Shown: piece after piece, positions 1,068 through 21,428 of the stretch
How positions within the stretch are numbered: the stretch's first letter is position 1
How the letters are laid out: every line of letters begins with the position of its first letter
DNA from: Opitutaceae bacterium
GTDB lineage: Bacteria > Verrucomicrobiota > Verrucomicrobiia > Opitutales > Opitutaceae
Direction: 5' to 3'
NCBI GenBank assembly: GCA_028280945.1
Contig: JANQKV010000001.1
Coordinates: 1-64,000 of the forward strand
Length of the DNA stretch: 64,000 nt
Position numbers and translations under genes: made by a program
Notes under the pieces: generated by a model
Database searches by the model: none
Told to the model about the DNA's origin: nothing
The model's input: the letters and a program-made list of their open reading frames with translations, nothing else

Positions 1068-4000
1068 TCAGCGCTCGACGGTGCGGGCTTCGCTGAGCAG
1101 GGAATCCGGCAGGGTCATGCCGACAGCATCGGCGTTGGGGACGCTGGCTGCGATGTAAATGCGGGGGGAAAGCATGATGGGGATATCGGCGGGGCTTTCG
1201 CCGCCGATGACCCGCACGATGTATTTCCCCAGCTCCTCTCCGGAGTAGCCGTAGTCGCGGCCGATGGCGATCGCAGCACCGAACTCCACGCTCGTGTTGT
1301 TGAGACTCAGCAAGGGGGTGCGGGCTTGGCGAGCAGCGCGGGTAATGGCCGCAAATCCGGCCGAGGACTGATTGTCCGGAATCTGCACGATGGCATCAAC
1401 CGACCGGGACACGAGAGCAAGGGCGGCGTCTGGCAGTTCACTGGGACTGTTGGCAGCGACGGCCACCAATTCGTAGCCGCGTTCCTGACACAGTTTTTCA
1501 AAGGTGTCTTTGAAGAAAACTGAGTTGGCTTCAGAAGGGCAAAACAGCGTGCCCAGTCGCCGGTAGTCCGGGAAATGTGCTGCCAGCAGGTCCAACATCT
1601 CGGCGGCGGGGCCCATGACCGTGATGCCGGTGAGATTGTCAGGATGATCGGTATAACTCTTGGCGGCGCCGGCGGCGACCGGATCGGCCACCACGCCGAA
1701 CAAGACCGGGCGGTCCTTGATGCGCGCGGCAGCCACCTGGGTCGCGGGAGTGCTGAGGGGGATGACGATGTCGGCGCGATCGGTGAGAATGGCGTCCACG
1801 ATGCCGCTGAGTGCTCCGATGTCGCCCTGGGCACTGCGGATGCGCAAGGTGTAATCGCGCCCCTCCTCCAGCGGGCTTTCGTGCAGCACCTTCTCAATCC
1901 CTTCGATGGCCTGCTCGAATGGCGGTGACTCCATGTAGAAATACAGTTGGAGGTTCCAGGTTTTGCCGGAGGGATTGGGAGAACGGGCGGAGGTGCGCGC
2001 GGTGGCGGCAGTTGCGGAGGAGTTCACAGGGGCGCCGGACTGCGACCCCTCAATTTCGGCGATCACGTCTTCGGGAATCTGCAAACCCAAGGCCTGCATT
2101 TGCGCCCGATTGAATTTGCTTTCGCCCACCGAAACGTTTGCGAGCGGGATATCGGCCGGATCCCCACCAAGAAGCACGCGGGCGAGCGGCTCGGCGGCGG
2201 CTTTACCGCTGAAATAAAACCCCGGACCGACCGTGAACAGGAATCCTCGGTCGAGATAGGTGGCGTCTTCACCGATGAGTGGAATGCCGGCGGTGGCGGC
2301 AGTCTTGGCCACCGCTTCGATCGCCTGATAGGCCGTGTTGTCGCTCGGCACATAGAACACATCGATGTTACGGCTGACGAGTCCCTGGGCAGCCTGGATG
2401 ACTTCGCCGGTGTTGGCAGCGGTGAGTTCCACCAGCTCGATGCCCGCAGCATCGCAGAGGTCACGCATCATGGAGACGACCTTTACCGAGTTGGCCTCAC
2501 CACTGTTGTAGAGGGTGCCGATTCGTTTGACGTGGGGAAAGGCAAGCTGGGTCAGGCGCAGGAGTTCGTCCAATGGCGGCAGTGAACCGATACCGGTGAC
2601 GCCCGGTGCGTGGTCCTTGAAAGTGGGGCCGGCTCCGGCTGCCAATGGATCGGTCACAAACGTAAACACCACCGGTTTTTCCTTCACGGCCAAAAGCGCT
2701 CCTTGCAGGACGGGAGTGGAAAACGTGACGATTGCATCGACCGGCGTATGATCGAGATTCACGAGCATGGGGCGGATGTTCACCATTTCGCCCTGTGCAT
2801 GGGTCTCACTGATCTCCAGGTTGCGTCCCACTTCGAATCCCAATTCGGCAAGGCCATCGAGCAATCCCTCTTGGCAGATCTCACGGCTGTCATCCGGGGC
2901 GAAATAAGCTGCGGCGATGCGGTAGGTTTGCCCGGGTTGCGCCAGGGGTCGGGTACCGGGCGCGGCAGCTTCGGAGTTGCGTGGTGCCATGGCTTTTTCG
3001 TGTTCGACTCCCTGTTCGTCGATCACGAGTCGTGCGCTGGTGATGAGGTCCGCCGGGATGGTCCAATCGTCCTTCAAGTTGTTCAGTGCCTGACGATTGA
3101 TCATCAGCTGCTCCGGCATGTAGTTATCAATCGAAACCGAAGCCGGATCGAGGCCGTTGAGGATGTCGCCGGCGAGTTGACCGGTCCGGAACCCAACGGC
3201 GTGGTAGTCAGCTCCGACATCAAACAGGGTGCCACGACGGACGTTGGGCGGAATCACACTAAACGTTGGGATGTGGCCTTTGCGGGCGGCGGCGATGACG
3301 CCATCGATTCCGACGATCACGGAAACGTCGCCCGGCACCCAGATTGCCTCCGCACCGCGGGAGACGACGGCGGCGGCGGCCTCTGCGACGCCGGCGGTGT
3401 TTTCGACGGTGGCTTCAAGAAGTTCGATTCCCAGATCCGCACAGATTGAGCGGGCGAGCACGAGTTGGGCTTCGGAATTAGTCTCGGCGGCGTTCCATAC
3501 TACGCCCACTCGCGAAAGAGCAGGATACATCTGCCGGGCAGTGCGCAGTGCCAGTTCCACGGGCTGCATGGTGCCATATCCGGCCAGGTAAGGGGGGTGG
3601 TCGCGGTGGTTGTCGCGGTTTATGCCGACGCCGGCGCCGTAGGGATCGGTGACCAATCCGAAGACATGGTTGCGGCCTACCGCCTGATTGGCGGTGGCGA
3701 CCGCTTGGAGTGATGGCGTGCTGTTGCTCAGCAGGAGGTCGTAATTTCCTCCGACCATGCCTTGGGCGATGGATTGGGCGGTGGGCATGTCGCCCTGCGC
3801 ATTGTAGCGGGTGAGCTTGAGATTCTGACCCTCGATCCACCCCTTGTCTGCCAAACCGGCAATCATGCCGGCGCTGCCGTCATCGAGAATCGTCTGGGAG
3901 GCGTGCTGCAGCAAAGCGACCCGCATGGCGCGGGCAGGATTGGAACCGCTTTCGCCACCTGCCCGCATGGCGGCTGCCGGTTTGATTCGCGAATCGAGAT

Positions 4001-4073
4001 CCGAGAGCAGGAGGACGCCAGAGGTGGCGGCGATAAGAGTGAGCCCTAGGAGGAGTCGGCGAACTACGAGCAT
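1068..4073 (-). CDS. Exported protein with three fused TrpX-type ABC substrate-binding domains
   Basis: 1001 residues. The N-terminal hydrophobic segment (about residues 5-25) is a signal peptide or anchor. Three successive copies of an ABC_sub_bind (TrpX/PF04392-like) domain follow, beginning near residues 50, 385 and 705. Each copy repeats the same landmarks: an AQGD or AQGE element after the first helix (NAQGDMP, HAQGEMV, SAQGDIG) and a VTDP/VADP..AG element (VTDPYGAG, VTDPLAAG, VADPVAAG). Single-domain relatives are about 320 residues, so this is a true tandem fusion. The linkers between copies are Ala/Ser/Pro-rich. TrpX-type proteins normally feed an ABC permease, but none is encoded nearby. 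The adjacent downstream gene encodes a STAS regulator instead, so a sensory role is possible (inference). The ATG at 4073 precedes a good signal sequence. Confidence 0.85.
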   Translation of the reverse strand: MLVVRRLLLGLTLIAATSGVLLLSDLDSRIKPAAAMRAGGESGSNPARAMRVALLQHASQTILDDGSAGMIAGLADKGWIEGQNLKLTRYNAQGDMPTAQSIAQGMVGGNYDLLLSNSTPSLQAVATANQAVGRNHVFGLVTDPYGAGVGINRDNHRDHPPYLAGYGTMQPVELALRTARQMYPALSRVGVVWNAAETNSEAQLVLARSICADLGIELLEATVENTAGVAEAAAAVVSRGAEAIWVPGDVSVIVGIDGVIAAARKGHIPTFSVIPPNVRRGTLFDVGADYHAVGFRTGQLAGDILNGLDPASVSIDNYMPEQLMINRQALNNLKDDWTIPADLITSARLVIDEQGVEHEKAMAPRNSEAAAPGTRPLAQPGQTYRIAAAYFAPDDSREICQEGLLDGLAELGFEVGRNLEISETHAQGEMVNIRPMLVNLDHTPVDAIVTFSTPVLQGALLAVKEKPVVFTFVTDPLAAGAGPTFKDHAPGVTGIGSLPPLDELLRLTQLAFPHVKRIGTLYNSGEANSVKVVSMMRDLCDAAGIELVELTAANTGEVIQAAQGLVSRNIDVFYVPSDNTAYQAIEAVAKTAATAGIPLIGEDATYLDRGFLFTVGPGFYFSGKAAAEPLARVLLGGDPADIPLANVSVGESKFNRAQMQALGLQIPEDVIAEIEGSQSGAPVNSSATAATARTSARSPNPSGKTWNLQLYFYMESPPFEQAIEGIEKVLHESPLEEGRDYTLRIRSAQGDIGALSGIVDAILTDRADIVIPLSTPATQVAAARIKDRPVLFGVVADPVAAGAAKSYTDHPDNLTGITVMGPAAEMLDLLAAHFPDYRRLGTLFCPSEANSVFFKDTFEKLCQERGYELVAVAANSPSELPDAALALVSRSVDAIVQIPDNQSSAGFAAITRAARQARTPLLSLNNTSVEFGAAIAIGRDYGYSGEELGKYIVRVIGGESPADIPIMLSPRIYIAASVPNADAVGMTLPDSLLSEARTVER

Positions 4074-4817: not shown

Positions 4818-5645
4818 ATGAAACTAAAATCTCTCTTTCGTGACCGAGCCCTTGAGGCGATGGAGGTGCCGGACCAATTGGATCGGGTGTTTCAGGCCAC
4901 CAATGCCCGCGGCTGGCTGGCCCTTGTCGGAGTCGTGGCGGTGCTTTTGGTAGCGCTGGGATGGGGAGTAACGGGCACCCTTCAGGTGCAGGTTCCCGCA
5001 TCCGGGGTGTTGGAACGTCCGGGCGAACTCTTTACCGTGGCTATCCGGGAATCCGGATTTATCGAAGCGGTCTTGGTCAAGGAAGGCCAGCTCGTTGGGG
5101 ATGGAGAGTATCTTGCAACCATGGTCATCGACACCGGTCCGGATGAGCCGTGGCCGGTATCCAGCCCTCAGTCGGGCCGGGTTATCGAGCTGATGGTGAC
5201 GGAAGGCGAATATGCGGAACATGGTCGGTCGTTGGCCCGGATCGAACGGGACGACAGCGACAATGATCTGGTAGCCATGCTTTTTTTGCCTGCCCGGGAG
5301 GCGGGCCGGGTGGAGCCGGGAATGGCTGTGGAGGTGCTACCGCAAACAGTCCACCCTCGCGAGCACGGCTATCTGCGGGGGGAAGTCGTTGACGTGGAGG
5401 ATTTTCCCGTGACGTTGGCCGGATTGGAAAGGCGATTAGGCAACGAGGCGCTGGCTCGCACATTTATTGGTGAGACTCCCCCGGTATTGGTGCGGGTGGC
5501 TTTGCGGCGAACGCAGTCAAATACCAGCGGTTACGAGTGGTCCATTTCCGGAGGACCAGATCATCGTTTGCGGAGCGGCACGCTTTGCGATGCGCGGATC
5601 ACCCTGCGGCGGACGGCACCAATCCAATTGCTGTTTGATCGTTGA
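4818..5645 (+). CDS. NHLM/NHLP bacteriocin system secretion protein (HlyD-like membrane fusion protein)
   Basis: 275 residues. A short cytoplasmic start is followed by one membrane segment (about residues 33-55, rich in Leu/Val/Ala). Then comes a periplasmic part with two short biotinyl-lipoyl-like half motifs (VPASGVLERPGE near 58 and SPQSGRVIELMVTEGEY near 115) and a beta-barrel-like C-terminus. At 275 residues it lacks the long coiled coil of classic HlyD, as is usual for the adaptor of nitrile-hydratase-leader peptide (NHLP) systems. The next gene, a peptidase-containing exporter, starts 3 bp after this stop, so the two are almost certainly co-transcribed. It would couple the ABC exporters to passage across the periplasm. 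The family call rests on context as much as on sequence. Confidence 0.85.
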   Translation: MKLKSLFRDRALEAMEVPDQLDRVFQATNARGWLALVGVVAVLLVALGWGVTGTLQVQVPASGVLERPGELFTVAIRESGFIEAVLVKEGQLVGDGEYLATMVIDTGPDEPWPVSSPQSGRVIELMVTEGEYAEHGRSLARIERDDSDNDLVAMLFLPAREAGRVEPGMAVEVLPQTVHPREHGYLRGEVVDVEDFPVTLAGLERRLGNEALARTFIGETPPVLVRVALRRTQSNTSGYEWSISGGPDHRLRSGTLCDARITLRRTAPIQLLFDR

Positions 5646-5648
5646 GGT

Positions 5649-7862
5649 ATGCCCGACTCCGTCCAAACCCGTGACGTGCCGCCGCTGCCGCGACGGAGGG
5701 TGGTGACCCCGACCGTTTTGCAGATGGAAGCGGTGGAGTGTGGGGCGGCCGCTCTCACCAAAATCCTGCGTTACCATGGTTGCATGGTTTCGCTCGAGGA
5801 GGTGCGGGTCGAATGCGGGGTATCACGGGATGGCAGCAAAGCGGCGAATCTGCTCAAGGCTGCGCGGCGTTATGGCTTCAAGGCAGAGGGGCGCCATGTT
5901 GACCTCGCATACCTCAAACAGGTGCAGCTGCCGTTCATCGCCTTTTGGAATTTCAATCACTTCCTGGTGGTGGAAGGATACAGCCGCAGGGGGGTGCACT
6001 TGAACGATCCAGCCGGGGGGCGGAGGGTAGTGACGCGAGAAATGTTTGACGAGGCGTTCACCGGGTTGGTGCTGACCTTCAAGCCGGAGCCTGATTTCAA
6101 GCCGAATGGACGTTTGCCAACGTTGTTCAGCCGTTTGCAGAGCTACCTCGCCGGCTCCTCCAATGCAGTGGTATACACGGTATCCGTCAGTCTGCTACTT
6201 TTGATCCCGGGCCTGCTTGTGCCGGTGTTCAGCAAGGTGTTCATCGACGAGGTGCTCGTTCATCGGTTCGATGGGTGGTTGCGACCCTTGTTGATTGGGC
6301 TCGGTCTGCTGGCAGTGTTACGTGGTGTTCTGGTGTGGTTGCGGCAGCACTATCTTTTGCGCCTGGAAACCCGGTTGGCGCTGACGGCATCCAGTCGATT
6401 CCTCTGGCACGCTTTGCGCATGCCAGCGGTATTTTTCACCCAGCGATTTGGCAGCGAAGTGGGTGCCCGCGTGATGTTGAACGACCGGGTGGCTTCCTTG
6501 CTTTCCAACGATCTGGCCACCGCCGCGCTCGATCTGTTGTCGCTGTTTTTTTTCGTGGGGATGATGGCCTACTACGACCCTTTGTTGGCGGTGGTCGCAT
6601 TGTTGTTCGGCGCAGGCAACTTTTACGCCTTGCACAAGGGTTCGCGCGTGCGTGAGGAAGCCAGTCGCCGCGCAATGCAGGAGGCGGGCAAATACAATAC
6701 CGCATCCATGATCGGTTTACAGACCATCGAGTCGATCAAGGCAGGTGGCCGCGAAGACACGTATTTTCGTGGTTGGTGGGGGCACCACGTGAACATGCTC
6801 AATGCCCAGCAGGCGCTTAGTGTGCCGGGGCACGTGCTCAATGCCTTGCCGGGACTGCTCAACGGACTGGCGTTGGTCACGATATTGGGCATCGGCGGAA
6901 CACGTGTGATTGAAGGAGACTTGTCCATCGGGACTCTGGTCGCGGTCCAGGGATTGATGATGGCCTTCGCAGACCCGATCAGTCGGTTGGTCAAACTGGG
7001 TGGGACGGTGCAGGATATGACCGGGAGCATTGATCGGCTCGACGATGTGTTGTGTCACTCTGTCGACCCAGCCTGCCGGGACGAGGACCAGTCCCCCTTG
7101 TCAGCCGATTCGGAGGAGCCCAAATCAGATCCGCAACCAAAGTTGGTAGGGCGATTGGAATTACGGAACCTGACCTTCGGATATGCCCGGCTGTCCCGAC
7201 CTTTGATCGAGGATCTCAATCTCACCGTGCGGCCCGGATCCCGGGTGGCCCTGGTGGGTCCGAGTGGTTGTGGCAAGTCGACCATCGCACGGTTGGTGGC
7301 TGGATTGTATGCACCGTGGTCTGGCGGGGTTTTAGTCGATGGCAAACCGGAACCCGAGTGGCCGCGCATAACCCTGTGTCACTCGCGGGCAATGGTCGAT
7401 CAGGACATCTTTCTGTTTGCCGGCACGCTGCGGGAAAATCTTACCCTTTGGGACGCGACGGTGCCCGAACAACATATTGTGCAAGCCGCGAAGGACGCCT
7501 GCATTCACGACGACGTTATGCAGCGCAGGGATGGTTATGAAACGCTGGTGAAGGAGAATGGCACAAACTTCAGCGGTGGTCAGCGCCAGCGCATCGAAAT
7601 CGCCCGTGCTCTCGTGAACAACCCCAGTCTGTTGATTCTTGATGAAGCGACGAGCGCGCTCGATGTGAACACCGAGTTGGAGATAGATCGCAACCTGCGC
7701 CGGCGGGGCTGCACCTGCCTGATCATCGCCCACCGGCTCAGCACGATCCGCGACTGTGACGAGATCGTGGTGCTTGATCGCGGCCGAGTGGTTGAGCGGG
7801 GGACACATGACGAGCTCATCGCCGACGACGGCCTTTACCATTCCCTCGTGAAACACATGTGA
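5649..7862 (+). CDS. NHLP-type peptidase/permease/ATPase exporter (C39 peptidase ABC transporter)
   Basis: 737 residues with the order C39 peptidase, six-helix membrane domain, ATPase. The peptidase (about 15-145) has its Cys at C31 (VECGAA), His at H104 (NHFLVV) and Asp at D120 (NDPAGG), so the catalytic triad is complete. It should cut RiPP leaders after a double Gly, and the precursor at 10827-11177 has such a site. The membrane part covers about 170-460. The ATPase shows Walker A GPSGCGKST, signature FSGGQRQR, Walker B LLILDEATSALD and an H-loop IIAHRLST. The start ATG at 5649 lies 3 bp after the HlyD-like gene, and the next exporter begins 4 bp after this stop. It should remove the leader while exporting the peptide, powered by ATP. 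Confidence 0.93.
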   Translation: MPDSVQTRDVPPLPRRRVVTPTVLQMEAVECGAAALTKILRYHGCMVSLEEVRVECGVSRDGSKAANLLKAARRYGFKAEGRHVDLAYLKQVQLPFIAFWNFNHFLVVEGYSRRGVHLNDPAGGRRVVTREMFDEAFTGLVLTFKPEPDFKPNGRLPTLFSRLQSYLAGSSNAVVYTVSVSLLLLIPGLLVPVFSKVFIDEVLVHRFDGWLRPLLIGLGLLAVLRGVLVWLRQHYLLRLETRLALTASSRFLWHALRMPAVFFTQRFGSEVGARVMLNDRVASLLSNDLATAALDLLSLFFFVGMMAYYDPLLAVVALLFGAGNFYALHKGSRVREEASRRAMQEAGKYNTASMIGLQTIESIKAGGREDTYFRGWWGHHVNMLNAQQALSVPGHVLNALPGLLNGLALVTILGIGGTRVIEGDLSIGTLVAVQGLMMAFADPISRLVKLGGTVQDMTGSIDRLDDVLCHSVDPACRDEDQSPLSADSEEPKSDPQPKLVGRLELRNLTFGYARLSRPLIEDLNLTVRPGSRVALVGPSGCGKSTIARLVAGLYAPWSGGVLVDGKPEPEWPRITLCHSRAMVDQDIFLFAGTLRENLTLWDATVPEQHIVQAAKDACIHDDVMQRRDGYETLVKENGTNFSGGQRQRIEIARALVNNPSLLILDEATSALDVNTELEIDRNLRRRGCTCLIIAHRLSTIRDCDEIVVLDRGRVVERGTHDELIADDGLYHSLVKHM

Positions 7863-7866
7863 ACAG

Positions 7867-10800
7867 ATGAGCGAGCGAAATCCAGAAACGGCGAAGATGT
7901 CTACTCATTGGCGTGATGAAGTGCGGGCTTGTGGACAAGTTGAGGAACGCGGAGGAAATCAACCGTTCACCCTGGATGGAGCGGATGCGGTTTGGTGGAT
8001 TGAGTCCGGTTCGGTTGATTTGTTTTCGGTATCATTGCCGGGTGAAGACGGATCCCGGAATCCGTTGGGGCACGTGGACGGCGATGGACTGCTGTTTGGA
8101 TTAAACCTGACCGAGGATACCATGGCCGCGGGGGTGCAGGCTGTGCCAACGGCAGACACCCGTTTGAGACGGGTGGACCGAGCCGCGTTCTCCGCCTTGC
8201 TCACGGTCGCTCCGGTGCTACCTGATCTGGCCGAACGCGTTGACGATTGGCTGGCGGCATTGCTCGGCGGCATTGCAAGGGACATCAATCCACGGGCGGA
8301 CATGTTGTTGGAGGCAGGACAGCAGGTTGAACTGGAGGCGGGACAACATGTGCGTTCCGCAGGTGGCATTGTTTGGGCACGGCACAGCGCGGGCGCGGGA
8401 TTGTTCATCGGCATGGAGGAGCGGGTGGTGGAAAACGGACCGGTTTGTACCCCGCTCTCGCGTCGCGCTTGGATGGAGGTATTGAGCGCGGGAAAATGGG
8501 AGGGGCTGGACACGGCGATGGTTCTGGCCGGCGAGGATTTTTGGACGCAGATTGACGGGTTTCATGCGGTCGTCAGCCGATGCGAATGGATGAACCGTGG
8601 GTTGCTGGCGGTCGACGAGTTGAATCGCCTCAAGGACAAACGCGATTACCATCGAAAGGTGCGACTGGAGGGAAACGCCTCGCTGGGACGAGTGCTTAAC
8701 CCCAAAAGCATCCCGGAATCTGCGATACCCGGTGGGGATGCCTTGCTGGCGGCCTGCCGGAGGATCGGTGAGGTGCTCGGAATTTCGATCAAGCAGCATC
8801 GTGATGCGATAGCGGGTCGCCCCCAAATCGACCCGCTCGGTGACCTGGCCAAGGCGTCTGGTCTGCGGGTGCGCGAGGTGGCACTGGAAGCGCAATGGTG
8901 GAGGGAGGATAACGGTCCCTTGCTCGGATACTGGCACGACAATTCGGAACCGGTGGCGCTCATTCCCGCCTCGTCGACAAGCTATGACCTATACGCGTTG
9001 ACGGATACCCGGCCCCGCCGTGTTGATGCCACGCTGGCGGCGCGCCTTAAGGGTCGTGGACATCAGTTCAACAGCCCGTTGCCGGATGAACCGGTCACCT
9101 TGCGCGGCCTGCTCAAAGTCGGCCTTCGCCGCACCGGACGGGACTGGGCCCGCGTTGCGGTGCTGGGACTGCTGGGCGGTGGCATGAGCGTGCTGCTGCC
9201 CTGGGCCACCGGGATCGTATTTGATCAGTTGATACCCCACGGCTCGATCGGGCAGCTGGTGATGTTGTGCGTTGCATTGGCCGTGACTTCGCTGGCGGGG
9301 GCGTTTTTCCAACTGACTCGTGACCTGAGCATGACCCGTATTGAGGGTAAAATGGATGCGGATATGCAGACGGCGATCTGGGATCGGTTGATCCGGTTGC
9401 CGGCGCGTTTTTTCCAGCAATATTCGTCAGGCGAACTGCAGGAGCGCGGATCGGCGATACCTCGGATTCGTCGGCAGTTGTCGCAATTTTTCGTCACAAC
9501 CGTGTTGGGAGGAATCTTTGGCGGACTCAACTTCCTGATGTTGTTCATCTATGATGTCCGGCTGGCTTTGTGGGCGACGCTTATAATGCTGTTGGCGGTG
9601 GGACCGTTCGTCTATTCGAGTTGGCGGCAATATCCGCACCAATGGGCGGCGGCCGAAGCACGCGGCAAGGTGGAAGGACTGGTGCAGCAGCTTTTCCGCG
9701 CGATCAGCAAGATTCGAGTCAGCGGAGTTGAGCCGTTGGTATTCGGAGAGTGGGCCACGGCGTTTGCCCGCTATCGGGATCACCGTTTTATGGCGCGGGT
9801 CCTGGCCAATCAGATCAGGACCTATCTCGCCGTGATCCCGTTGCTTGGCACGATGGTATTCTTCTTCCTGGTGGTGGGACGCGAACCTCCATTGGAGGTG
9901 GGTCGGTTTGTGGCGTTTACCTTTGCGTTTGGAGTCTTCTTTCAGGGCTTTGTCGCCATGCTCGGAGCACTTACATCGATCGTGAACGTGGTGCCGGTCT
10001 ACCGGCGAATCGAGCCGGTTTTGCAGGAGGTCCCGGAAACCGCGGGAGCCAAGACGGACCCAGGCACCATCCGAGGAGGGATGGAATTGAATCACCTGCG
10101 TTTCCGCTATGCTGAAGACGGCCCCTGGGTGATTGATGATGTTTCGTTGTCCATCGTCCCGGGAGAATTTACTGCCGTTGTCGGGCCGTCCGGGGCGGGC
10201 AAGTCGACCCTCATGCGTCTCATGTTGGGATTTGATGCCCCGCAGTCGGGGGGCGTCCTGTATGATGGCAGGAACATGCAAGACTTAGATGTGAAGGCCG
10301 TGCGAGGCTTGATGGGGGTGGTGCTGCAAAACGATCGGCTCGCGGCCGGAAGTGTGATGACCAATTTGTGCGGGCAGGGAACCTACACCCAGGAAGAAGC
10401 ATGGGCAGCGTTACGTGCAGTGGGTTTGGAGGAGGACGTGAAGGCGATGCCGATGGGCATTCACACCATGTTGACGGGTGGCGTGGATACGCTTTCAGGC
10501 GGGCAGCGTCAGCGGTTGATCCTGGCGCGAGCGATTATCAGCAATCCGCGCATCTTGATTTTGGACGAAGCGACCAGTGCGCTCGACAACCGTGCCCAGC
10601 GCGTGGTTACGGAGAGTCTCGCCGCGCTGCAGACCACCCGCGTGGTCATTGCCCATCGACTGAGCACGGTGATTTCAGCCGACCGGATCGTGGTAATTGA
10701 TCACGGGAAAATTGTGGAGCAAGGCACCTACGAGACTCTGATGAAACGCAACGGCCTTTTCTCTACGATGGCCAGGCGACAGTTGGCAGCCGAATCGTAG
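7867..10800 (+). CDS. NHLP-type ABC exporter, permease/ATPase with long N-terminal domain
   Basis: 977 residues. The first 370 or so carry no peptidase triad. They begin with a cyclic-nucleotide-binding-like beta fold (about 35-120) and continue with a region of unknown job, as in the second exporter subunit of NHLP clusters. The membrane domain spans about 410-700. The ATPase at the C-terminus is intact: Walker A GPSGAGKST, signature LSGGQRQR, Walker B ILILDEATSALD, H-loop VIAHRLST. It probably pairs with the peptidase-containing exporter just upstream, forming a heterodimer (known for related systems; inferred here). The stop lies 26 bp from the end of the convergent precursor gene. Confidence 0.9.
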   Translation: MSERNPETAKMSTHWRDEVRACGQVEERGGNQPFTLDGADAVWWIESGSVDLFSVSLPGEDGSRNPLGHVDGDGLLFGLNLTEDTMAAGVQAVPTADTRLRRVDRAAFSALLTVAPVLPDLAERVDDWLAALLGGIARDINPRADMLLEAGQQVELEAGQHVRSAGGIVWARHSAGAGLFIGMEERVVENGPVCTPLSRRAWMEVLSAGKWEGLDTAMVLAGEDFWTQIDGFHAVVSRCEWMNRGLLAVDELNRLKDKRDYHRKVRLEGNASLGRVLNPKSIPESAIPGGDALLAACRRIGEVLGISIKQHRDAIAGRPQIDPLGDLAKASGLRVREVALEAQWWREDNGPLLGYWHDNSEPVALIPASSTSYDLYALTDTRPRRVDATLAARLKGRGHQFNSPLPDEPVTLRGLLKVGLRRTGRDWARVAVLGLLGGGMSVLLPWATGIVFDQLIPHGSIGQLVMLCVALAVTSLAGAFFQLTRDLSMTRIEGKMDADMQTAIWDRLIRLPARFFQQYSSGELQERGSAIPRIRRQLSQFFVTTVLGGIFGGLNFLMLFIYDVRLALWATLIMLLAVGPFVYSSWRQYPHQWAAAEARGKVEGLVQQLFRAISKIRVSGVEPLVFGEWATAFARYRDHRFMARVLANQIRTYLAVIPLLGTMVFFFLVVGREPPLEVGRFVAFTFAFGVFFQGFVAMLGALTSIVNVVPVYRRIEPVLQEVPETAGAKTDPGTIRGGMELNHLRFRYAEDGPWVIDDVSLSIVPGEFTAVVGPSGAGKSTLMRLMLGFDAPQSGGVLYDGRNMQDLDVKAVRGLMGVVLQNDRLAAGSVMTNLCGQGTYTQEEAWAALRAVGLEEDVKAMPMGIHTMLTGGVDTLSGGQRQRLILARAIISNPRILILDEATSALDNRAQRVVTESLAALQTTRVVIAHRLSTVISADRIVVIDHGKIVEQGTYETLMKRNGLFSTMARRQLAAES

Positions 10801-10826
10801 GCGGCTTTAGGATGACGCTCAACCTA

Positions 10827-11177
10827 TTACCAGCCGTCGTCACCGTCGGCGCCGTCCGCGTCTTCGCCTTCATAATATACGTAAGGTCCTCCGGCGACCT
10901 TTGACAGGGCATCGTCGGAAATTGCGCGGTTTTGAGGGTTCTGAGGAACGACAAAATTTATCTCATCTTCAGTTTCGAAAATCACTTTGATTTCGGAGAG
11001 ATCCAGTTGCTCCTTCGCTTCATCGGCCCTTTCCGGTTTGAATTCATCGATGGCGCTGGAAATGGCCTCAGTGGGATTGTTCTTCAATGCCTCCGCGAAT
11101 TCGGGATCGTTCCAAGCCTTTTGAATGATAAGTTCTTCGATGGCTCGACGGGTGGTTATACGGTTATGGAGATTCAT
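10827..11177 (-). CDS. RiPP precursor with nitrile-hydratase-type (NHLP) leader and acidic Tyr/Trp core
   Basis: 116 residues. The leader resembles the alpha subunit of nitrile hydratase, as in the NHLP family: RRAIEELIIQKAWNDPEF near the N-terminus, a strand rich in Glu/Ile/Val (IKVIFETEDEINFVVPQ) and a terminal ALSKVAGG. The double Gly is at residues 96-97, which predicts cleavage there and a 19-residue core, PYVYYEGEDADGADGDDGW. The core has three Tyr, one Trp, seven Asp or Glu and five Gly. It contains no Cys, Ser, Thr or Lys. The gene faces the exporter operon tail to tail and diverges from the FAD oxidase gene. Upstream sequence is AT-rich with no clear Shine-Dalgarno. The precursor call is strong; the nature of the mature product is unknown. 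Confidence 0.9.
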   Translation of the reverse strand: MNLHNRITTRRAIEELIIQKAWNDPEFAEALKNNPTEAISSAIDEFKPERADEAKEQLDLSEIKVIFETEDEINFVVPQNPQNRAISDDALSKVAGGPYVYYEGEDADGADGDDGW

Positions 11178-11442
11178 ATATTCAATTTGATTCTACACTA
11201 TCCGGTTCATTCCCAATCGGACGGCGCGGTTAATCACTTACCAATCGTTCGGTGACGTGAAGAGTAAGTATTGTGTGATTAAGTTTTGGTTAAATTTTGG
11301 ATCTGATCCCTACCTCGCCTGAAAGGCTTGCACAGGAAATGCACCGATACTGAAGCATCAGCGTTCAAGTTCGCGGACTGAGCAGCGCTCCGATTGAGTT
11401 TGTTTTCTCGCCTCGGCAGTTGAGCCAATCAGGTATGATCTC
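11178..11442. promoter_or_regulatory. Divergent promoter region between RiPP precursor and FAD oxidase
   Basis: 265 bp separate the starts of the precursor (minus) and the oxidase (plus). The precursor side is AT-rich, and reading minus it offers TAGAAT as a possible -10 about 15-20 bp before the ATG. I could not assign a confident -35. A shared control region for substrate and tailoring enzyme is plausible. Confidence 0.35.
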
Positions 11443-12804
11443 GTGACTCTGCCTCGTGCCCAGCTAACGAAGTATCGAACCGATTTTGGACGCCTGGTCG
11501 TGCGGCCTCCTTTGGTGGTCGCCCAACCTGATTCAGTGTCGATGTTACGTTCGTGTTTTAAGCAGGCGGTAGAATACGGCTGGTCGATCGTGGTGCGCGG
11601 AGGCGGCCAGTCTTTCGGGGGGCAATCGACGTGCCTTGGCGGTGCCGTCGTTGATATGACCCGGATGACTGAGCATGGCTCGGGCCGTCAAATCGGTTCC
11701 GACTGGTGCAAATGCGGTGCCGGGGAAACCGTCGGTAGTATTCAGGCGTTCTTACGCCAACGCGGTGTTCGTCTCCCTATCTACACAAGTGGAACCGATG
11801 CGACCATTGGAGGGGTCTTGGCGCTCGGTGGCGTGAGCGGTCGTAGTTTTCGCCGCGGTTTGCTGGCCCATCATGTCTTGGAATTGGAGGTAATGGGAAC
11901 TGACGGACGCTTGTGGGTGTGTCGACCGGACCATAACCGGAATCTCATGGACTTATTTTTGGGCACGGCTGGCCTAGCCGGCGCGCTGGTTTCAGTCTGC
12001 CTGCGCACCGAACCGCTGAAACCATGGCGAAGCCGACTAAAGGTCAGTGATATTCCGCTCGAGGAACTGGAGGAGGTGTATCGGTGTTGTGTTCGCGAGC
12101 TGGAGTTAGTGAGCTTGGAAGGCTTTGTGGTGCGAAAGGGGGAAACAGCTCGGTTGGAGGTGCATGCTGCGATCGAATGCGCAGACAGATTGGAAGCGGA
12201 ACGACACCATTCTCGATGGGAGTCCTTGCAACTGAAGTGGCCAGGCTGCTCAGGGGCGATGGTCACTACCGGGAGCATAGATGATCCGCTCAAATTTTCG
12301 GCTTCATTGGGCGGATGGTGCCGTGACGAAAAGTACACGCGTTTGGAAGGACTTCCAGACGGGCAGGCTGCCCTGCCCATCTCGCTTGCGTTCCACCCCA
12401 GCGACGCCGTCGTTTTCGTGAAGAGGTGGGCGCGTTTGGCGGCCGCCAATCCGGATGTTTTTGCGACCCGACCCTATTTCGCAATGGTCGCCGCGCGACT
12501 TCCGGGAGTAGGGAACTGGCTCCGTTTGTCGGAGTCGGTCGAACACATGGTGGCGTTCGATATTTTTGCGAGTTTTCCATTCCAGGACAGAATACACGCC
12601 CAAAGTTTGCTGGGTGAGCTGGCGGGTTCCGCGGCCGACTGCCGGGGGCGGCTTTATCCTTATGGCTGGATGCCGGGGACGGATGTCTTGCGCCGACTGT
12701 TTCCCAAGCCGGACGGTGCCATGCATGAGGCACGCCGGACGCTGGATCCCGCGGGGCTGCAGCGATCAGTGCTCGAATCCTTGTTTGACTGTCCTCAGGA
12801 ATGA
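11443..12804 (+). CDS. FAD-linked oxidase (PCMH/cytokinin-dehydrogenase-like), likely RiPP-cluster enzyme
   Basis: 453 residues from a GTG start; the nearby ATG at 11435 is out of frame. The FAD-binding PCMH domain fills the first 200 residues: RGGGQSFGGQS at 52-62, then TIGGVLALGG at 121-130 and a typical LELEVMGTDG strand. In relatives with covalently bound flavin the fifth position of the first motif is the His that links to FAD. Here it is Q56, so flavin is probably non-covalent (inference). The C-terminal half is a weaker match to the substrate domain of the VAO superfamily. No signal peptide is seen, so it should act in the cytoplasm. It sits beside the RiPP precursor and is the only recognisable redox enzyme in the cluster. 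Substrate unknown. Confidence 0.8.
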   Translation: MTLPRAQLTKYRTDFGRLVVRPPLVVAQPDSVSMLRSCFKQAVEYGWSIVVRGGGQSFGGQSTCLGGAVVDMTRMTEHGSGRQIGSDWCKCGAGETVGSIQAFLRQRGVRLPIYTSGTDATIGGVLALGGVSGRSFRRGLLAHHVLELEVMGTDGRLWVCRPDHNRNLMDLFLGTAGLAGALVSVCLRTEPLKPWRSRLKVSDIPLEELEEVYRCCVRELELVSLEGFVVRKGETARLEVHAAIECADRLEAERHHSRWESLQLKWPGCSGAMVTTGSIDDPLKFSASLGGWCRDEKYTRLEGLPDGQAALPISLAFHPSDAVVFVKRWARLAAANPDVFATRPYFAMVAARLPGVGNWLRLSESVEHMVAFDIFASFPFQDRIHAQSLLGELAGSAADCRGRLYPYGWMPGTDVLRRLFPKPDGAMHEARRTLDPAGLQRSVLESLFDCPQE

Positions 12805-13859
12805 AATCCTGTGTGCTCTTCAAACTCGATGCCGAAGTAAGCTTTCCAGCCTAGAGAGGCGCTTGGCGTGACGCTCAATTTCACGTGATTGAATCGACGC
12901 CGGAAGGAAAACGCACGGCCTGCACAGACGAAGTCACCCGTGGCCGACCAATCCAGAATCGACTGTGCTTGGGACGCAGCCATAACCCCGAGGGCAACCA
13001 GATTCTCCAGAAGCGGTTTCGCAGAATTCTTTCTCCCAACTGTGAATTCCAGCCCCAGCCGTTCACCCCTACACGGTCCAATGTCGAGATGGAGGCACCA
13101 CAGTTGATTAATCAAGCCGGTCGCCTGCCAATGAACCAAGCGCTCCTGGAGATCGCCTGTCCAGCCGAGCGATTTGATGACATTTGGCAGGTGTTCCCAC
13201 TTGCCTTTGCCCCCTCGGTGGACGACGCAACATCGCATCCAATCCTTATTGCGATCCAACATGACGCCAAACTGAAACACCACCAGTGGATTGCGAACTG
13301 CTCGGACGAAGCGACCCAGGTTTCTGGCGATTTCCACTGGAACTTGAACGCCTCGCAAAACCCTCCAGTAGGGAAGCAGGCGCTTCAGTTGCTCGAGTTC
13401 GGATAAGTCTTCGTCTCGTCGCCAAGGTGGTGGGAAAAATACGCCCGGTGCGGGTAGAGCCTGCCCGTGACCCAGGGCTGGCAAATTTGTCAGATCAAAC
13501 TCCAGCCAAAGGGCATTTGGATTGTGGGTCGCGAATTCCGCGACGCGAGACCACAAGACGCCTTGCTGGCATTCGGTTGGAGGAAAAGCCGACGGCGGAT
13601 TCATGCCGGAAGCAACGAGCGCCCGGTCCCTACGCTCGTTGTGGTCGAGCCGAAAGGCCAGGTCGGCTGATGTGCCTGGGTTCTTGCCCAGCTGGCATTC
13701 AACACCAATTCCGGAGGCTAGAGTAAAAGGAAAACGGTGAGAAAGGTTGGAAAGTTTGGCAGCGAGTTCGGGTTGAACCAGACCGCAGCCAGCGAATGCG
13801 ATTTCTGATCCACCGGAATGTGTCACCAAGTCTCCAAGACTGATTGGATTTGTGATCAT
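12795..13859 (-). CDS. Unrecognised RiPP-cluster-associated protein
   Basis: 354 residues from the ATG at 13859. The frame stays open to a GTG at 14027, but the extra 56 residues lack protein-like character, so I chose the internal ATG. I do not recognise the family. Visible features: no signal peptide or membrane segment; LWLEFDL and APGVFFPPPW in the middle; a regular alternation of hydrophobic residues; a C-terminal strand-rich segment VKLSVTPSASLGWKAYFGI that resembles a fold-closing beta hairpin. It overlaps the FAD oxidase by 10 bp, tail to tail. Its place next to precursor, oxidase and exporters suggests a role in maturation or immunity, but nothing in the sequence shows which. Confidence 0.7.
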   Translation of the reverse strand: MITNPISLGDLVTHSGGSEIAFAGCGLVQPELAAKLSNLSHRFPFTLASGIGVECQLGKNPGTSADLAFRLDHNERRDRALVASGMNPPSAFPPTECQQGVLWSRVAEFATHNPNALWLEFDLTNLPALGHGQALPAPGVFFPPPWRRDEDLSELEQLKRLLPYWRVLRGVQVPVEIARNLGRFVRAVRNPLVVFQFGVMLDRNKDWMRCCVVHRGGKGKWEHLPNVIKSLGWTGDLQERLVHWQATGLINQLWCLHLDIGPCRGERLGLEFTVGRKNSAKPLLENLVALGVMAASQAQSILDWSATGDFVCAGRAFSFRRRFNHVKLSVTPSASLGWKAYFGIEFEEHTGFHS

Positions 13860-14076
13860 ATCATAAGTGAACCCCACAGGCCAACCAAAGCACGATGAAG
13901 GCCTGCGTGCCAAGTGAGTTGAAATACGCTTTGAGTCAGCTTTTGGTTCACTGCGCTCAGAGCTTACGCCCCAAATCCATTGGATTTGCCCATCTCCGCT
14001 TTGCTCCGTCGACTGCGAGCCCTCCACAATTGGGCTCTTGTGGTCGTGTCGTCGTTCGGCTCGGAACAGGAGCGAA

Positions 14077-19480: not shown

Positions 19481-20890
19481 ATGTCCAAGTCTCCTCGCTG
19501 CGTCCTCCTCTTCGTCCTTGGTTGGGTTTGGCTGTCAGGCGTGGCTTCTGCCGAGGGATCGCCCAATATGATCATCATTCTCGTCGATGACCAAGGGTAT
19601 TACGACTTGAGCGGCTACGGAGCGACCGAGGTCAATACGCTCAATATCGACCAGATGGCCCGGGAGGGGATTCGATTCACCAATTACTACGCCGCTGCTC
19701 CGATTTGCAGTCCTTCGCGGGCAGGACTTTTGACGGGGCAATATCCGCGGCGTTTGGGAAACCATGTCTGGGTTCACCGTCCTGACTCGAACCGGGGAAT
19801 ACCTCCGGAGTCACTCACTTTGGCGGAGTTGTTCCGCCAGAACGAATATGCCACGGCGTGTATTGGGAAATGGCATTTGGGTTCCGCAGAGGAGTTTCTG
19901 CCGAGGAATCAGGGGTTCGACCACTATTTTGGAGTTCTGCACAACCTCGATGGTGGTGAGGTCGGTCATTTTGAAGACGGAGCCGGTGTCCCCGTCATGC
20001 GCAATGACAAGGTGGTGACCCGGCCGGCGGATCCCGATTTGCTCGCACGGGACTACACGGACGAGGCCATTCGTTGGGTGAAGGAGCACGTTAAACAAAA
20101 CCAAGCTCCCTTCCTCCTCTACCTGCCTCACACCATGTTGCACAATCCGCTCGGGGTGGGTGAGGGGTTTATCGGTTCGTCAGATTGGGGGGAATATGGG
20201 GATGCGATTCAGGAGTTGGATCATCACGTCGGGAGGCTGATGCAGGTCTTGAAGGACCTGGAAATCGCAGATGATACCCTGGTCCTTTATCTTTCGGACA
20301 ACGGTCGAGGTCCGGGACGCAACACAGACCAACCGATTCGTGGCTCCAAGTTGACCACGTGGGAAGGAGGCATCCGGGTTCCGGGTATCATTTGGGGGTC
20401 GGGGGTCGGCATTAAGGAACGGGGAACTTCGCACGAAATCGTGCACGCGATGGATTGGTTCCCAACGCTGTCGGCCCTCGCTGGAATCCGCATACCCAAT
20501 CAGGTGGTATTGGACGGGAGGGACCTGAGTGGCTACCTCACGGGTCGAGGTAACCGAGCCACCGCCTTCCCCAGTGAACCGTCCTTGAATTCTAAAATCG
20601 CCGAACGTCGATTCTGGGATCCCGGCTGGGAGTGGACTCAAGCCGTTCCGATCACTCAGGAAGAATACCTGAACGCGTTTTTTTATCATGGCAGCACCGG
20701 CGCATTGGCTGCCGTCCGCAGTGGCAAATGGAAGCTGCATCTTCATCCGTCGCTTGTGCTTTATGACCTGAACGAAGATCCCGGGGAGCGGCATCCGATT
20801 GCCAATGGTTCTATGAAACGAAAGCTACGTGGCATGGCGATCCTGTTCCAGGAGGAGATGGCCCGGTATGCGGAGGCTCGGGTGAAGTGA
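19481..20890 (+). CDS. Secreted type I sulfatase
   Basis: 469 residues from the ATG at 19481, chosen because a signal peptide (about 1-25, ending near GVASA) follows at once. Metal ligands D36-D37 (ILVDDQG) and the sulfatase signature C76-S-P-S-R80 ([12 protein letters not shown]) are present. C76 is the residue converted to formylglycine. KWHLG and SDNGRGPG further on are also family marks. The enzyme removes sulfate esters outside the cytoplasm, probably from a glycan. No formylglycine-generating enzyme is encoded in this window. It lies divergent to the PSCyt1/DUF1501 pair and just before a decayed GMC gene whose frame begins inside the sulfatase stop. Confidence 0.92.
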
Positions 20891-21428
20891 CCCCGGTCGT
20901 TCGTCAGGTCTTGGCTTGGGAACGGCGGGAATCGGCATCCCGTCGCGTTCGGCCGCGGCAATTCACCTGGTGGCGTGCGCGAATCATGGGCGGGCGCACC
21001 AATCACTGGGGGAGAATTTCCCTGCGCAACGGCCCCTACGATTTCAAACCCTACAGCTACGACGGCTTGGGAGTGGACTGGCCGATTTCCTATGAAGATG
21101 TTGCGCCTTATTGCGACAAGGTGGAGATGCTGATTGGGTGTTCGGCAGCAACACCGGCATTGAAAACACCCCTGGCTCCTCTCCCGGAGTGCTACTGTCT
21201 CCGCCCAAGACCCAAGTGGGGGATTTGTTAACTCAGAAAGCCGCGAAATCATTGGGCATTCCGGTCGTGCCGGTGCACCGGGCGGTTCTTACCAAGTCGT
21301 TGGATGCTGGCTCCATTCCAGCAAAACTTCATCCGGGAAACAAGCGGGTGCAGGAAATCGTAGCCCGGTCGGTGCGCACAAGCACAGGACTAGAAGGCCC
21401 GCAGCGAATCTGCGATAGCAGGGAGTGA
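20887..21428 (+). pseudogene. Decayed GMC-family oxidoreductase fragment with frameshift
   Basis: The first frame (20887-21138) contains [20 protein letters not shown] and [20 protein letters not shown], clear GMC/gluconate-dehydrogenase-like segments. The homology then moves to another frame at about 21138 ([13 protein letters not shown], then AAKSLGIPVVPVHRAVLTK) and fades by about 21310. The N-terminal GxGxxG FAD site and the C-terminal catalytic His region are both missing. A frameshift plus loss of both ends makes this a pseudogene. Confidence 0.8.

What the first reader, a model, noticed from the sequence alone, without database searches (positions are those of the whole stretch)
4818..13859. 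NHLP RiPP cluster with no recognised classical maturase
An adaptor, two exporters and a leader-bearing precursor are all intact, yet the only other genes are an FAD-linked oxidase and an unrecognised protein. Known NHLP clusters usually hold a LanM, YcaO, radical SAM or similar enzyme. The oxidase or the unknown protein may define a new kind of modification. The exporters and precursor are seen directly; the maturation role is inference.
Basis: partly seen in the sequence, partly recalled or inferred. Interest (0 to 1): 0.8.

Follow-up and report, generated by a model that had tools for sequence, protein, structure and literature searches.

The report
Peptide cluster with likely prenyltransferase maturase
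A bacterial gene cluster that seemed to make a modified peptide without any known modifying enzyme most likely uses a recently described type of enzyme that attaches a terpene-like chain to the peptide, next to an oxidase that may reshape that chain.

Summary
The cluster is real: NHLP-type exporters (over curated cut-offs), an NHLP-like precursor (slightly under its cut-off), an FAD-linked oxidase and an unannotated protein at 4818-13859. No LanM, YcaO or radical SAM protein is among the 11 proteins scanned there and beside it. Two corrections: the HlyD adaptor lacks its coiled-coil block, and the genome holds a LanM locus elsewhere with its own precursors. LanM cannot act on this core (PYVYYEGEDADGADGDDGW), which has no Ser, Thr or Cys.

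The "unrecognised" protein belongs to a divergent family (leave-one-out E=4e-20). Of seven members found by protein search alone, six lie beside RiPP genes. One is fused to an MstE-like terpene cyclase domain (5e-49), the layout reported for the peptide prenyltransferase-cyclase NctPC. I conclude it is an NctPC/MppC-type peptide prenyltransferase acting on the C-terminal Trp or a Tyr; five of 12 precursors in family-bearing clusters end in Trp, against 0 of 13 elsewhere. Direct alignment to NctPC/MppC and structure prediction were not possible.

The oxidase resembles cytokinin dehydrogenase and berberine-bridge-type flavoproteins; oxidation of the attached isoprenyl group is plausible but untested. 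The gene set was seen in no other genome searched.

The parts
4818..5645 (+). NHLP-type HlyD adaptor without its coiled-coil block (275 aa)
   Evidence: TIGR03794 216.7 bits, over the cut-off; lacks about 135 central residues found in 5 of 5 compared adaptors
5649..7862 (+). NHLM ABC1 exporter with N-terminal C39 peptidase
   Evidence: TIGR03796 998 bits; Peptidase_C39 3.5e-35; motifs present
7867..10800 (+). NHLM ABC2 exporter
   Evidence: TIGR03797 825.5 bits; ATPase motifs present
10827..11177 (-). NHLP-like precursor, 116 aa; 97-aa leader ending SKVAGG, predicted 19-aa core PYVYYEGEDADGADGDDGW (3 Tyr, C-terminal Trp, 7 acidic residues, no Ser/Thr/Cys/Lys/Arg)
   Evidence: TIGR03793 E=1.7e-12, 47.0 bits, below the 50.9 cut-off; composition
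11443..12804 (+). FAD-linked oxidase, VAO/PCMH superfamily, 453 aa; C-terminal substrate domain unassigned
   Evidence: FAD_binding_4 3.9e-23; best solved relative cytokinin dehydrogenase 3e-16 over residues 12-198
12795..13859 (-). Predicted NctPC/MppC-type peptide prenyltransferase, 354 aa from the ATG at 13859 (frame open to a GTG at 14027); overlaps the end of the oxidase gene tail to tail by 10 bases
   Evidence: Family membership: leave-one-out E=4e-20, tblastn 2e-9 to Nostoc; a family domain is fused to an MstE-like cyclase in G629

Best explanation
This is an NHLP-type RiPP cluster whose main maturase is the protein at 12795-13859, a stand-alone peptide prenyltransferase of the alpha-beta-beta-alpha (ABBA) kind described for NctPC and MppC. 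Proposed order of events: the NHLP leader docks on the prenyltransferase; an isoprenyl group is moved from its diphosphate to the C-terminal Trp (next best, a Tyr of YVYY); the FAD-linked oxidase then takes a hydride from the isoprenyl-aryl unit, giving a dehydrogenated or ring-closed product; the C39 domain cuts after Gly-Gly and the two ABC proteins export the peptide. Shown here: gene content, leader-like and exporter assignments, family membership, and the MstE-like fusion in a relative. Inferred: prenyl transfer by this protein, the target residue, the oxidase's substrate, and the order. My step-wise estimates: family is the NctPC/MppC prenyltransferase family 0.85; this member prenylates this precursor 0.7; site is the Trp 0.5 or a Tyr 0.3; oxidase acts on the prenylated residue 0.35.
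For: Family: a profile built without the window protein finds it at E=4e-20, and each of the other 7 members is recovered when left out; 15 columns are invariant in 8 members, 9 of them charged and 2 Gly. Context: of 7 members found by protein search alone, 6 lie beside RiPP precursors or maturases: Nostoc (LanM 955 bits, PoyD-type epimerase 573 bits, NHLP and Nif11 precursors), Azospirillum (LanM 402 bits, two NHLP precursors of about 82 bits each), Pseudanabaena (LanM 820 bits, annotated Nif11 precursor; family domain fused to a 2OG oxygenase), Acaryochloris (annotated RiPP radical SAM C-methyltransferase and Nif11 precursor), G203 (NHLP precursor 61.1 bits, YcaO domain, SagB 106.5 bits), G629 (Nif11). 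The seventh, G501, lies on a 7.1-kb contig with no RiPP gene seen. An eighth, G562, was met through its exporters and has an NHLP precursor (72.0 bits). Prenyl chemistry: in G629 the family domain is fused to a domain matching the terpene cyclase MstE at 4.5e-49; a review says NctPC is an ABBA prenyltransferase domain fused to an MstE-like cyclase that geranylgeranylates Trp (PMC13290415, section 8). G562 has an adjacent protein with weak terpene-cyclase matches (Pfam SQHop_cyclase_C 2e-4, under its cut-off; drimenol synthase 1.7e-5) and a Trp halogenase (2.5e-38); the mpp cluster likewise joins MppC, a terpene synthase and a halogenase (PMC11791876, passages), and MppC geranylates Trp in a leader-dependent way (PMC12715784, whole text). 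Target: 5 of 12 precursors in family-bearing clusters end in Trp, against 0 of 13 in clusters whose fetched stretch has no family gene; Fisher p=0.015, by cluster 4 of 7 vs 0 of 5, p=0.08. Oxidase: berberine-bridge-type flavoproteins are known to oxidise isoprenyl groups on phenols and indoles (PMC11375781, passages), and cytokinin dehydrogenase, the closest solved relative, acts on prenylated adenine (recalled).
Against: No direct sequence match to NctPC or MppC could be made, as neither sequence was at hand. Profile-profile comparison is not convincing: with NphB P 0.03-0.05, where a reversed NphB control gave P 0.046 and 30 column shuffles reached 22.1 against the observed 22.2; with PagF-type enzymes P 0.03 (score 23.2, shuffles up to 17.2) but over only 22 columns out of register; global alignments gave P 0.33-0.72. 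The positive control, NphB against PagF-type, also failed (P 0.28-0.52), so the test has no power. The window protein is the most divergent member by leave-one-out score (74.5 bits). AlphaFold on the single sequence failed (pLDDT 33.5). The Trp pattern was noticed first and counted afterwards; Nostoc, G203 and G629 precursors do not end in Trp, and two of the five comparison clusters (C13, G576) share nearly the same cores. No MstE-like cyclase gene was found in this genome, though that search also missed the weak cyclase-like protein of G562. No match to the oxidase was found in any other family cluster fetched (tblastn), and its gene lies on the opposite strand to the precursor.
Confidence: 0.62

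Rival explanations
1. The FAD-linked oxidase is the true maturase: it oxidises or crosslinks the tyrosines of YVYY through quinone-methide or phenol-coupling chemistry, doing with flavin what P450 enzymes do in cittilin-type peptides, and the 12795-13859 protein is secondary.
For: The core has YVYY and no Ser, Thr or Cys; the oxidase belongs to a superfamily that oxidises phenols. P450-made aryl crosslinks are established for cittilins (PMC8708641, passages; that the core is Tyr-Ile-Tyr-Tyr is recalled).
Against: I found no RiPP with such a flavoprotein (0 papers; 0 uses of 'ripp' in the review's text). The four plasmid relatives of the oxidase whose neighbourhoods I opened (of 11) show no RiPP genes. 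A four-residue motif is weak evidence.
Confidence: 0.13
2. The family protein is RiPP-associated but not a prenyltransferase, for example a leader-binding or other accessory protein shared by many RiPP classes.
For: It occurs with LanM, YcaO, radical SAM epimerase and C-methyltransferase clusters and no member tested hits a family library through this domain.
Against: Fusion to an MstE-like cyclase, adjacency to a weakly terpene-cyclase-like protein, and presence here with no other likely core-modifying enzyme but the oxidase. A tailoring prenyltransferase may well accompany many classes.
Confidence: 0.1
3. The locus is decaying or vestigial: the adaptor has lost its coiled-coil block, no TolC or cyclase is near, and no relative keeps the set.
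For: Shortened adaptor; set not found elsewhere; no MstE-like cyclase found in the genome.
Against: All six frames are open and long, the exporters keep their motifs, and the family protein keeps all 15 invariant residues. The adaptor deletion is clean and in frame.
Confidence: 0.1
4. The precursor is matured in trans by the LanM of contig C13.
For: The same genome holds a LanM NHLP locus.
Against: The core has no Ser, Thr or Cys, and the C13 locus has its own precursors and exporters.
Confidence: 0.03

Closest known systems
NctPC (Hubrich et al. 2024, known here only through a review, PMC13290415, and reference lists)
   Same: ABBA prenyltransferase domain of a RiPP pathway; a relative of the window protein in G629 shows the same layout, family domain plus MstE-like cyclase domain
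   Different: The window gene has only the prenyltransferase-type domain, no MstE-like cyclase was found in the genome, and an FAD-linked oxidase is beside it
MppC lanthipeptide prenyltransferase, mpp cluster of Moorena producens (PMC12715784, PMC11791876)
   Same: Stand-alone ABBA prenyltransferase beside a long Gly-Gly leader precursor; Trp target; halogenase and terpene-cyclase company seen again in G562
   Different: mpp has a LanM, arginases and a Nif11 leader; the window has an NHLP-like leader, no LanM and an acidic core
Cyanobactin F-family prenyltransferases (PagF, PirF, LimF, PatF)
   Same: Peptide prenylation; same proposed fold class
   Different: No convincing sequence or profile match; these are leader-independent (PMC12715784)
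Berberine-bridge-type and cytokinin-dehydrogenase flavoproteins
   Same: N-terminal FAD_binding_4 domain
   Different: C-terminal substrate domain unassigned; Gln in the window protein (RGGGQS) where cytokinin dehydrogenase has His (RGRGHS) (alignment), so the usual His-FAD bond is not expected (recalled rule)
Cittilins and biarylitides
   Same: Short Tyr-rich aromatic motif
   Different: P450-made, not flavin; no P450 among the 11 window proteins scanned

Membership tests
NHLP / proteusin-type RiPP cluster | NHLM exporter set (TIGR03794, 03796, 03797) | tested here: met
   All three over curated cut-offs
NHLP / proteusin-type RiPP cluster | Precursor with NHLP leader over the TIGR03793 cut-off | tested here: inconclusive
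   E=1.7e-12 over the full model but 47.0 bits vs 50.9; the two C13 precursors beside a LanM also fall short in the genome search, 44.5 and 40.3 bits
NctPC/MppC-type peptide prenyltransferase family | Homology to the RiPP-linked family that includes a domain fused to an MstE-like cyclase | tested here: met
   Leave-one-out E=4e-20 with G629 in the profile; G629 cyclase domain vs MstE 4.5e-49
NctPC/MppC-type peptide prenyltransferase family | Direct sequence homology to NctPC or MppC themselves | not tested
   Neither sequence was available; the paper PMC11484575 is not held
NctPC/MppC-type peptide prenyltransferase family | ABBA (alpha-beta-beta-alpha x5) barrel | tested here: inconclusive
   A crude propensity profile and an untrusted single-sequence model can be read as strand pairs between helices, but do not show five clean pairs; profile comparison without power
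NctPC/MppC-type peptide prenyltransferase family | Transfer of an isoprenyl group to the precursor | not testable with these tools
   Needs an enzyme assay
Cyanobactin F-family prenyltransferase | Sequence similarity to PagF/PatF/TruF | tested here: not met
   No such PDB hit from the family profile; hhalign P 0.03 over 22 columns out of register
VAO/PCMH FAD-linked oxidase | FAD_binding_4 domain over cut-off | tested here: met
   82.1 vs 26.4 bits
Berberine-bridge-type oxidase in the strict sense | C-terminal BBE domain | tested here: not met
   Only FAD_binding_4 is above cut-off in Pfam; PDB matches end at residue 232 or earlier
Lanthipeptide | Ser/Thr and Cys in the core and a LanM in the cluster | tested here: not met
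   No Ser/Thr/Cys in the core; the only LANC_like hit in the genome is on C13

The most novel reading that the evidence does not exclude
A RiPP counterpart of the ergot or cannabinoid logic: a leader-guided prenyltransferase puts an isoprenyl chain on the Trp (or Tyr) of a ribosomal peptide, and an FAD-linked oxidase then closes or desaturates it, giving a terpenoid-alkaloid-like ring on a highly acidic peptide without any lanthionine, azole or radical SAM step. Here the flavoprotein stands in for the MstE-type cyclase of the known pathway.
Probability: 0.28. Interest if true: 0.75.

Novelty: new variant of a known kind. Interest (0 to 1): 0.5.

Why it matters
It turns a 'no maturase' puzzle into a testable prediction and shows that the recently found NctPC/MppC-type peptide prenyltransferases probably reach well beyond cyanobacteria and lanthipeptides (Azospirillum, and a few genomes of the window's own phylum, one of them with a YcaO/SagB cluster). 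No Pfam model hits this domain in any of the 8 members tested and no NCBIfam model in the 4 tested, so annotation pipelines will keep calling them hypothetical. If the oxidase acts on the prenyl group, it would be a way to build terpenoid-alkaloid rings on gene-encoded peptides.

Tried and rejected
Single-sequence AlphaFold of the 12795-13859 protein and of the oxidase: pLDDT 33.5 and 33.9, useless; no fold search was run on them.

Profile comparison with NphB and PagF-type enzymes: not convincing, and the positive control failed too, so I draw nothing from it.

Scans of genome contigs with the two proteins: nothing for the unknown, one weak 36% hit over 53 residues for the oxidase in a Calditrichota contig, not followed. 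Viral contigs: nothing.

Oxidase relatives on plasmids: 11 records, N-terminal FAD domain mainly; I opened 4 of 11 (Nostoc x2, Streptomyces, Amycolatopsis) and their annotated neighbourhoods show no RiPP genes. So the oxidase-RiPP pairing was seen once only.

The idea that the 598-aa neighbour in Pseudanabaena is a cyclase-like protein was dropped as evidence: no Pfam or PDB hit. The G008 hit (58 residues, E=4e-4) was not followed up. LanM in trans was rejected by core composition.

Full report
What is there. The six genes are present as described. The three exporter proteins pass their curated NHLP models and the motifs of both ABC proteins are present. The precursor matches the NHLP leader model over its whole length at E=1.7e-12, though its 47.0 bits miss the 50.9 cut-off; the two precursors beside the LanM of the same genome also score under it in the genome search. 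After a 97-residue leader ending SKVAGG the 19-residue core reads PYVYYEGEDADGADGDDGW: three Tyr, one C-terminal Trp, seven acidic residues, no Ser, Thr, Cys, Lys or Arg. A Pro directly after Gly-Gly is unusual for a C39 cut (recalled), so the exact cut is uncertain. No tRNA and no Rfam match at gathering threshold lies in the window.

Two corrections to the observation. The adaptor lacks its central coiled-coil block, about 135 residues that are present in 5 of 5 adaptors beside other NHLM-type exporters, and no TolC gene was seen beside it. The genome does hold a classical maturase: contig C13 carries a LanM (779.7 bits), two NHLP-type precursors with Cys/Ser cores, an exporter set, a JmjC-like protein by eye and a peptide-arginase-like protein (NF052474, 190.3 bits against a 350 cut-off). 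It gives the only LANC_like hit in the genome, and there is no YcaO hit (assembly 96% complete). Radical SAM enzymes were not searched genome-wide. The core of the window precursor offers LanM nothing.

How unusual the locus is. The oxidase at E <= 1e-15 was found only in the window's own genome among 286 class genomes. The unknown protein, as a single query, found only itself and one weak 58-residue hit in 286. The precursor finds, besides itself, only leader matches in one genome (G521) and one weak hit in another among 387 phylum genomes. Of two same-genus genomes, neither has the unknown protein; the one listed has no ABC2 match at E <= 1e-100. So the arrangement was not seen elsewhere.

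The unknown protein has a family. Translated search of plasmids gave full-length relatives in Nostoc (2e-9) and Azospirillum (1e-5) and a partial one in Pseudanabaena (0.01); later searches added Acaryochloris (broken gene), G203 and G501, G629 and, by way of its exporters, G562. Identity to the window protein is 18-24%, but leaving any one of 8 members out and searching with the rest recovers it, the window protein at 4e-20 (Z set to 100,000, background of 468 ORFs less the family copies). Fifteen positions are invariant; 6 of the 15 fall in strands listed for the untrusted model. In samples the family is rare: 3 of 387 phylum genomes, 4 of 177 order genomes and 2 of 315 class genomes, own genome included each time.

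What the family does. Six of the 7 members found by protein search alone lie beside RiPP precursors or maturases of different classes: LanM in three, a PoyD-type epimerase, an annotated RiPP C-methyltransferase, a YcaO/SagB pair, a Nif11 peptide. G501 does not, on a short contig. A protein that accompanies many classes is likely a tailoring enzyme. Its chemistry is suggested by company: in G629 the domain is fused to one that matches the terpene cyclase MstE at 4.5e-49, beside a Nif11 peptide; in G562 it sits beside a protein with weak terpene-cyclase matches (not recovered by the G629 cyclase as query) and a Trp halogenase. A review describes NctPC as an ABBA prenyltransferase domain fused to an MstE-like cyclase, with low similarity to cyanobactin enzymes, acting on Trp (PMC13290415, section 8 and passages). 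MppC is an ABBA, leader-dependent lanthipeptide prenyltransferase (PMC12715784, whole text) in a cluster that also has a terpene synthase and halogenase (PMC11791876, passages). The primary NctPC paper is not held. The match is thus by layout and company, not by direct alignment to NctPC or MppC. Fold evidence is weak: a crude propensity profile and the untrusted model can be read as strand pairs between helices, and profile comparison with two ABBA families is unconvincing with a failed positive control.

Target residue. Five of 12 precursors in clusters with the family end in Trp (window, Pseudanabaena, two in Azospirillum, G562), against 0 of 13 in five clusters whose fetched stretches have no family gene; p=0.015 by precursor, 0.08 by cluster. 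The pattern was noticed first and counted afterwards, and two of the five comparison clusters share nearly the same cores. Nostoc precursors lack Trp, though four of its five cores have Tyr, so Trp is the favoured but not the sole candidate.

The oxidase. It has a sound FAD_binding_4 domain. The closest solved relatives are cytokinin dehydrogenases; others include EncM, DprE1 and, weakly, the cannabinoid synthases and berberine bridge enzyme. Its C-terminal half matches nothing. A review of berberine-bridge-type oxidases tells of enzymes that oxidise isoprenyl groups on phenols and indoles (cannabinoid synthases, EasE, CnsA; PMC11375781, passages). A flavoprotein beside a peptide prenyltransferase could do the same. 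This is inference from one locus: no other family cluster fetched has a tblastn match to it. Other family clusters carry 2OG oxygenases (Pseudanabaena) or a flavin halogenase (G562), so an oxidative partner as such is not rare.

Novelty. I filed it as a new variant of a known kind: a prenyltransferase-based RiPP cluster without a recognised LanM, YcaO or radical SAM protein, with an FAD-linked oxidase in place of a cyclase. Searches of the held library found no paper joining RiPPs with such an oxidase (one search returned 0 papers, the others listings of which I opened only some); most subscription papers are not in that library, so this is not proof of absence. Whether prenyltransferase-only NHLP clusters have been described elsewhere I could not check.

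Noticed in passing
window 4818-5645: NHLP HlyD adaptor with a clean in-frame lack of the central coiled-coil block; such an adaptor could hardly reach TolC in the usual way.
   Followed up: partly
G000 contig C13 (L004 843-17481) and G576 (L042 2131-13955): LanM NHLP locus on C13 with a peptide-arginase-like protein and, by eye, JmjC-like and GNAT-like proteins; G576, in another family of the order, carries a similar set with one identical core (ARCAASCAASCAVTSTVSIGYPGVGAVGGCV), which suggests transfer or strong selection. No LanM was seen in the part of G576 fetched.
   Followed up: partly
L040 7966-9817 (G594): Five NHLP-like precursors in a row with exporters and, by eye, an outer-membrane-factor-like gene, but no maturase recognised in the 20-kb stretch: a better 'no maturase' case than this window.
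   Followed up: no
L044 8672-10027 (G562): A weakly terpene-cyclase-like protein that begins with an NHLP-leader-like stretch (NHase_alpha 1.3e-4, under its cut-off), beside a prenyltransferase-family gene, a Trp halogenase and a precursor with core LCCCW.
   Followed up: partly
L065 7941-10052 (G629): Fusion of the prenyltransferase-family domain with an MstE-like cyclase in a genome of the window's own order, next to a Nif11 peptide gene.
   Followed up: yes
L011 14911-16704 (Pseudanabaena plasmid pPg_03): The prenyltransferase-family domain fused to a 2OG-Fe(II) oxygenase, annotated only as 2OG-Fe(II) oxygenase.
   Followed up: partly
window 1068-4073: One protein with three ABC_sub_bind stretches.
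   Followed up: no
window 20887-21428: Short reading frames in two frames that look by eye like pieces of one GMC-type oxidoreductase; perhaps a pseudogene. No search was run on them.
   Followed up: no
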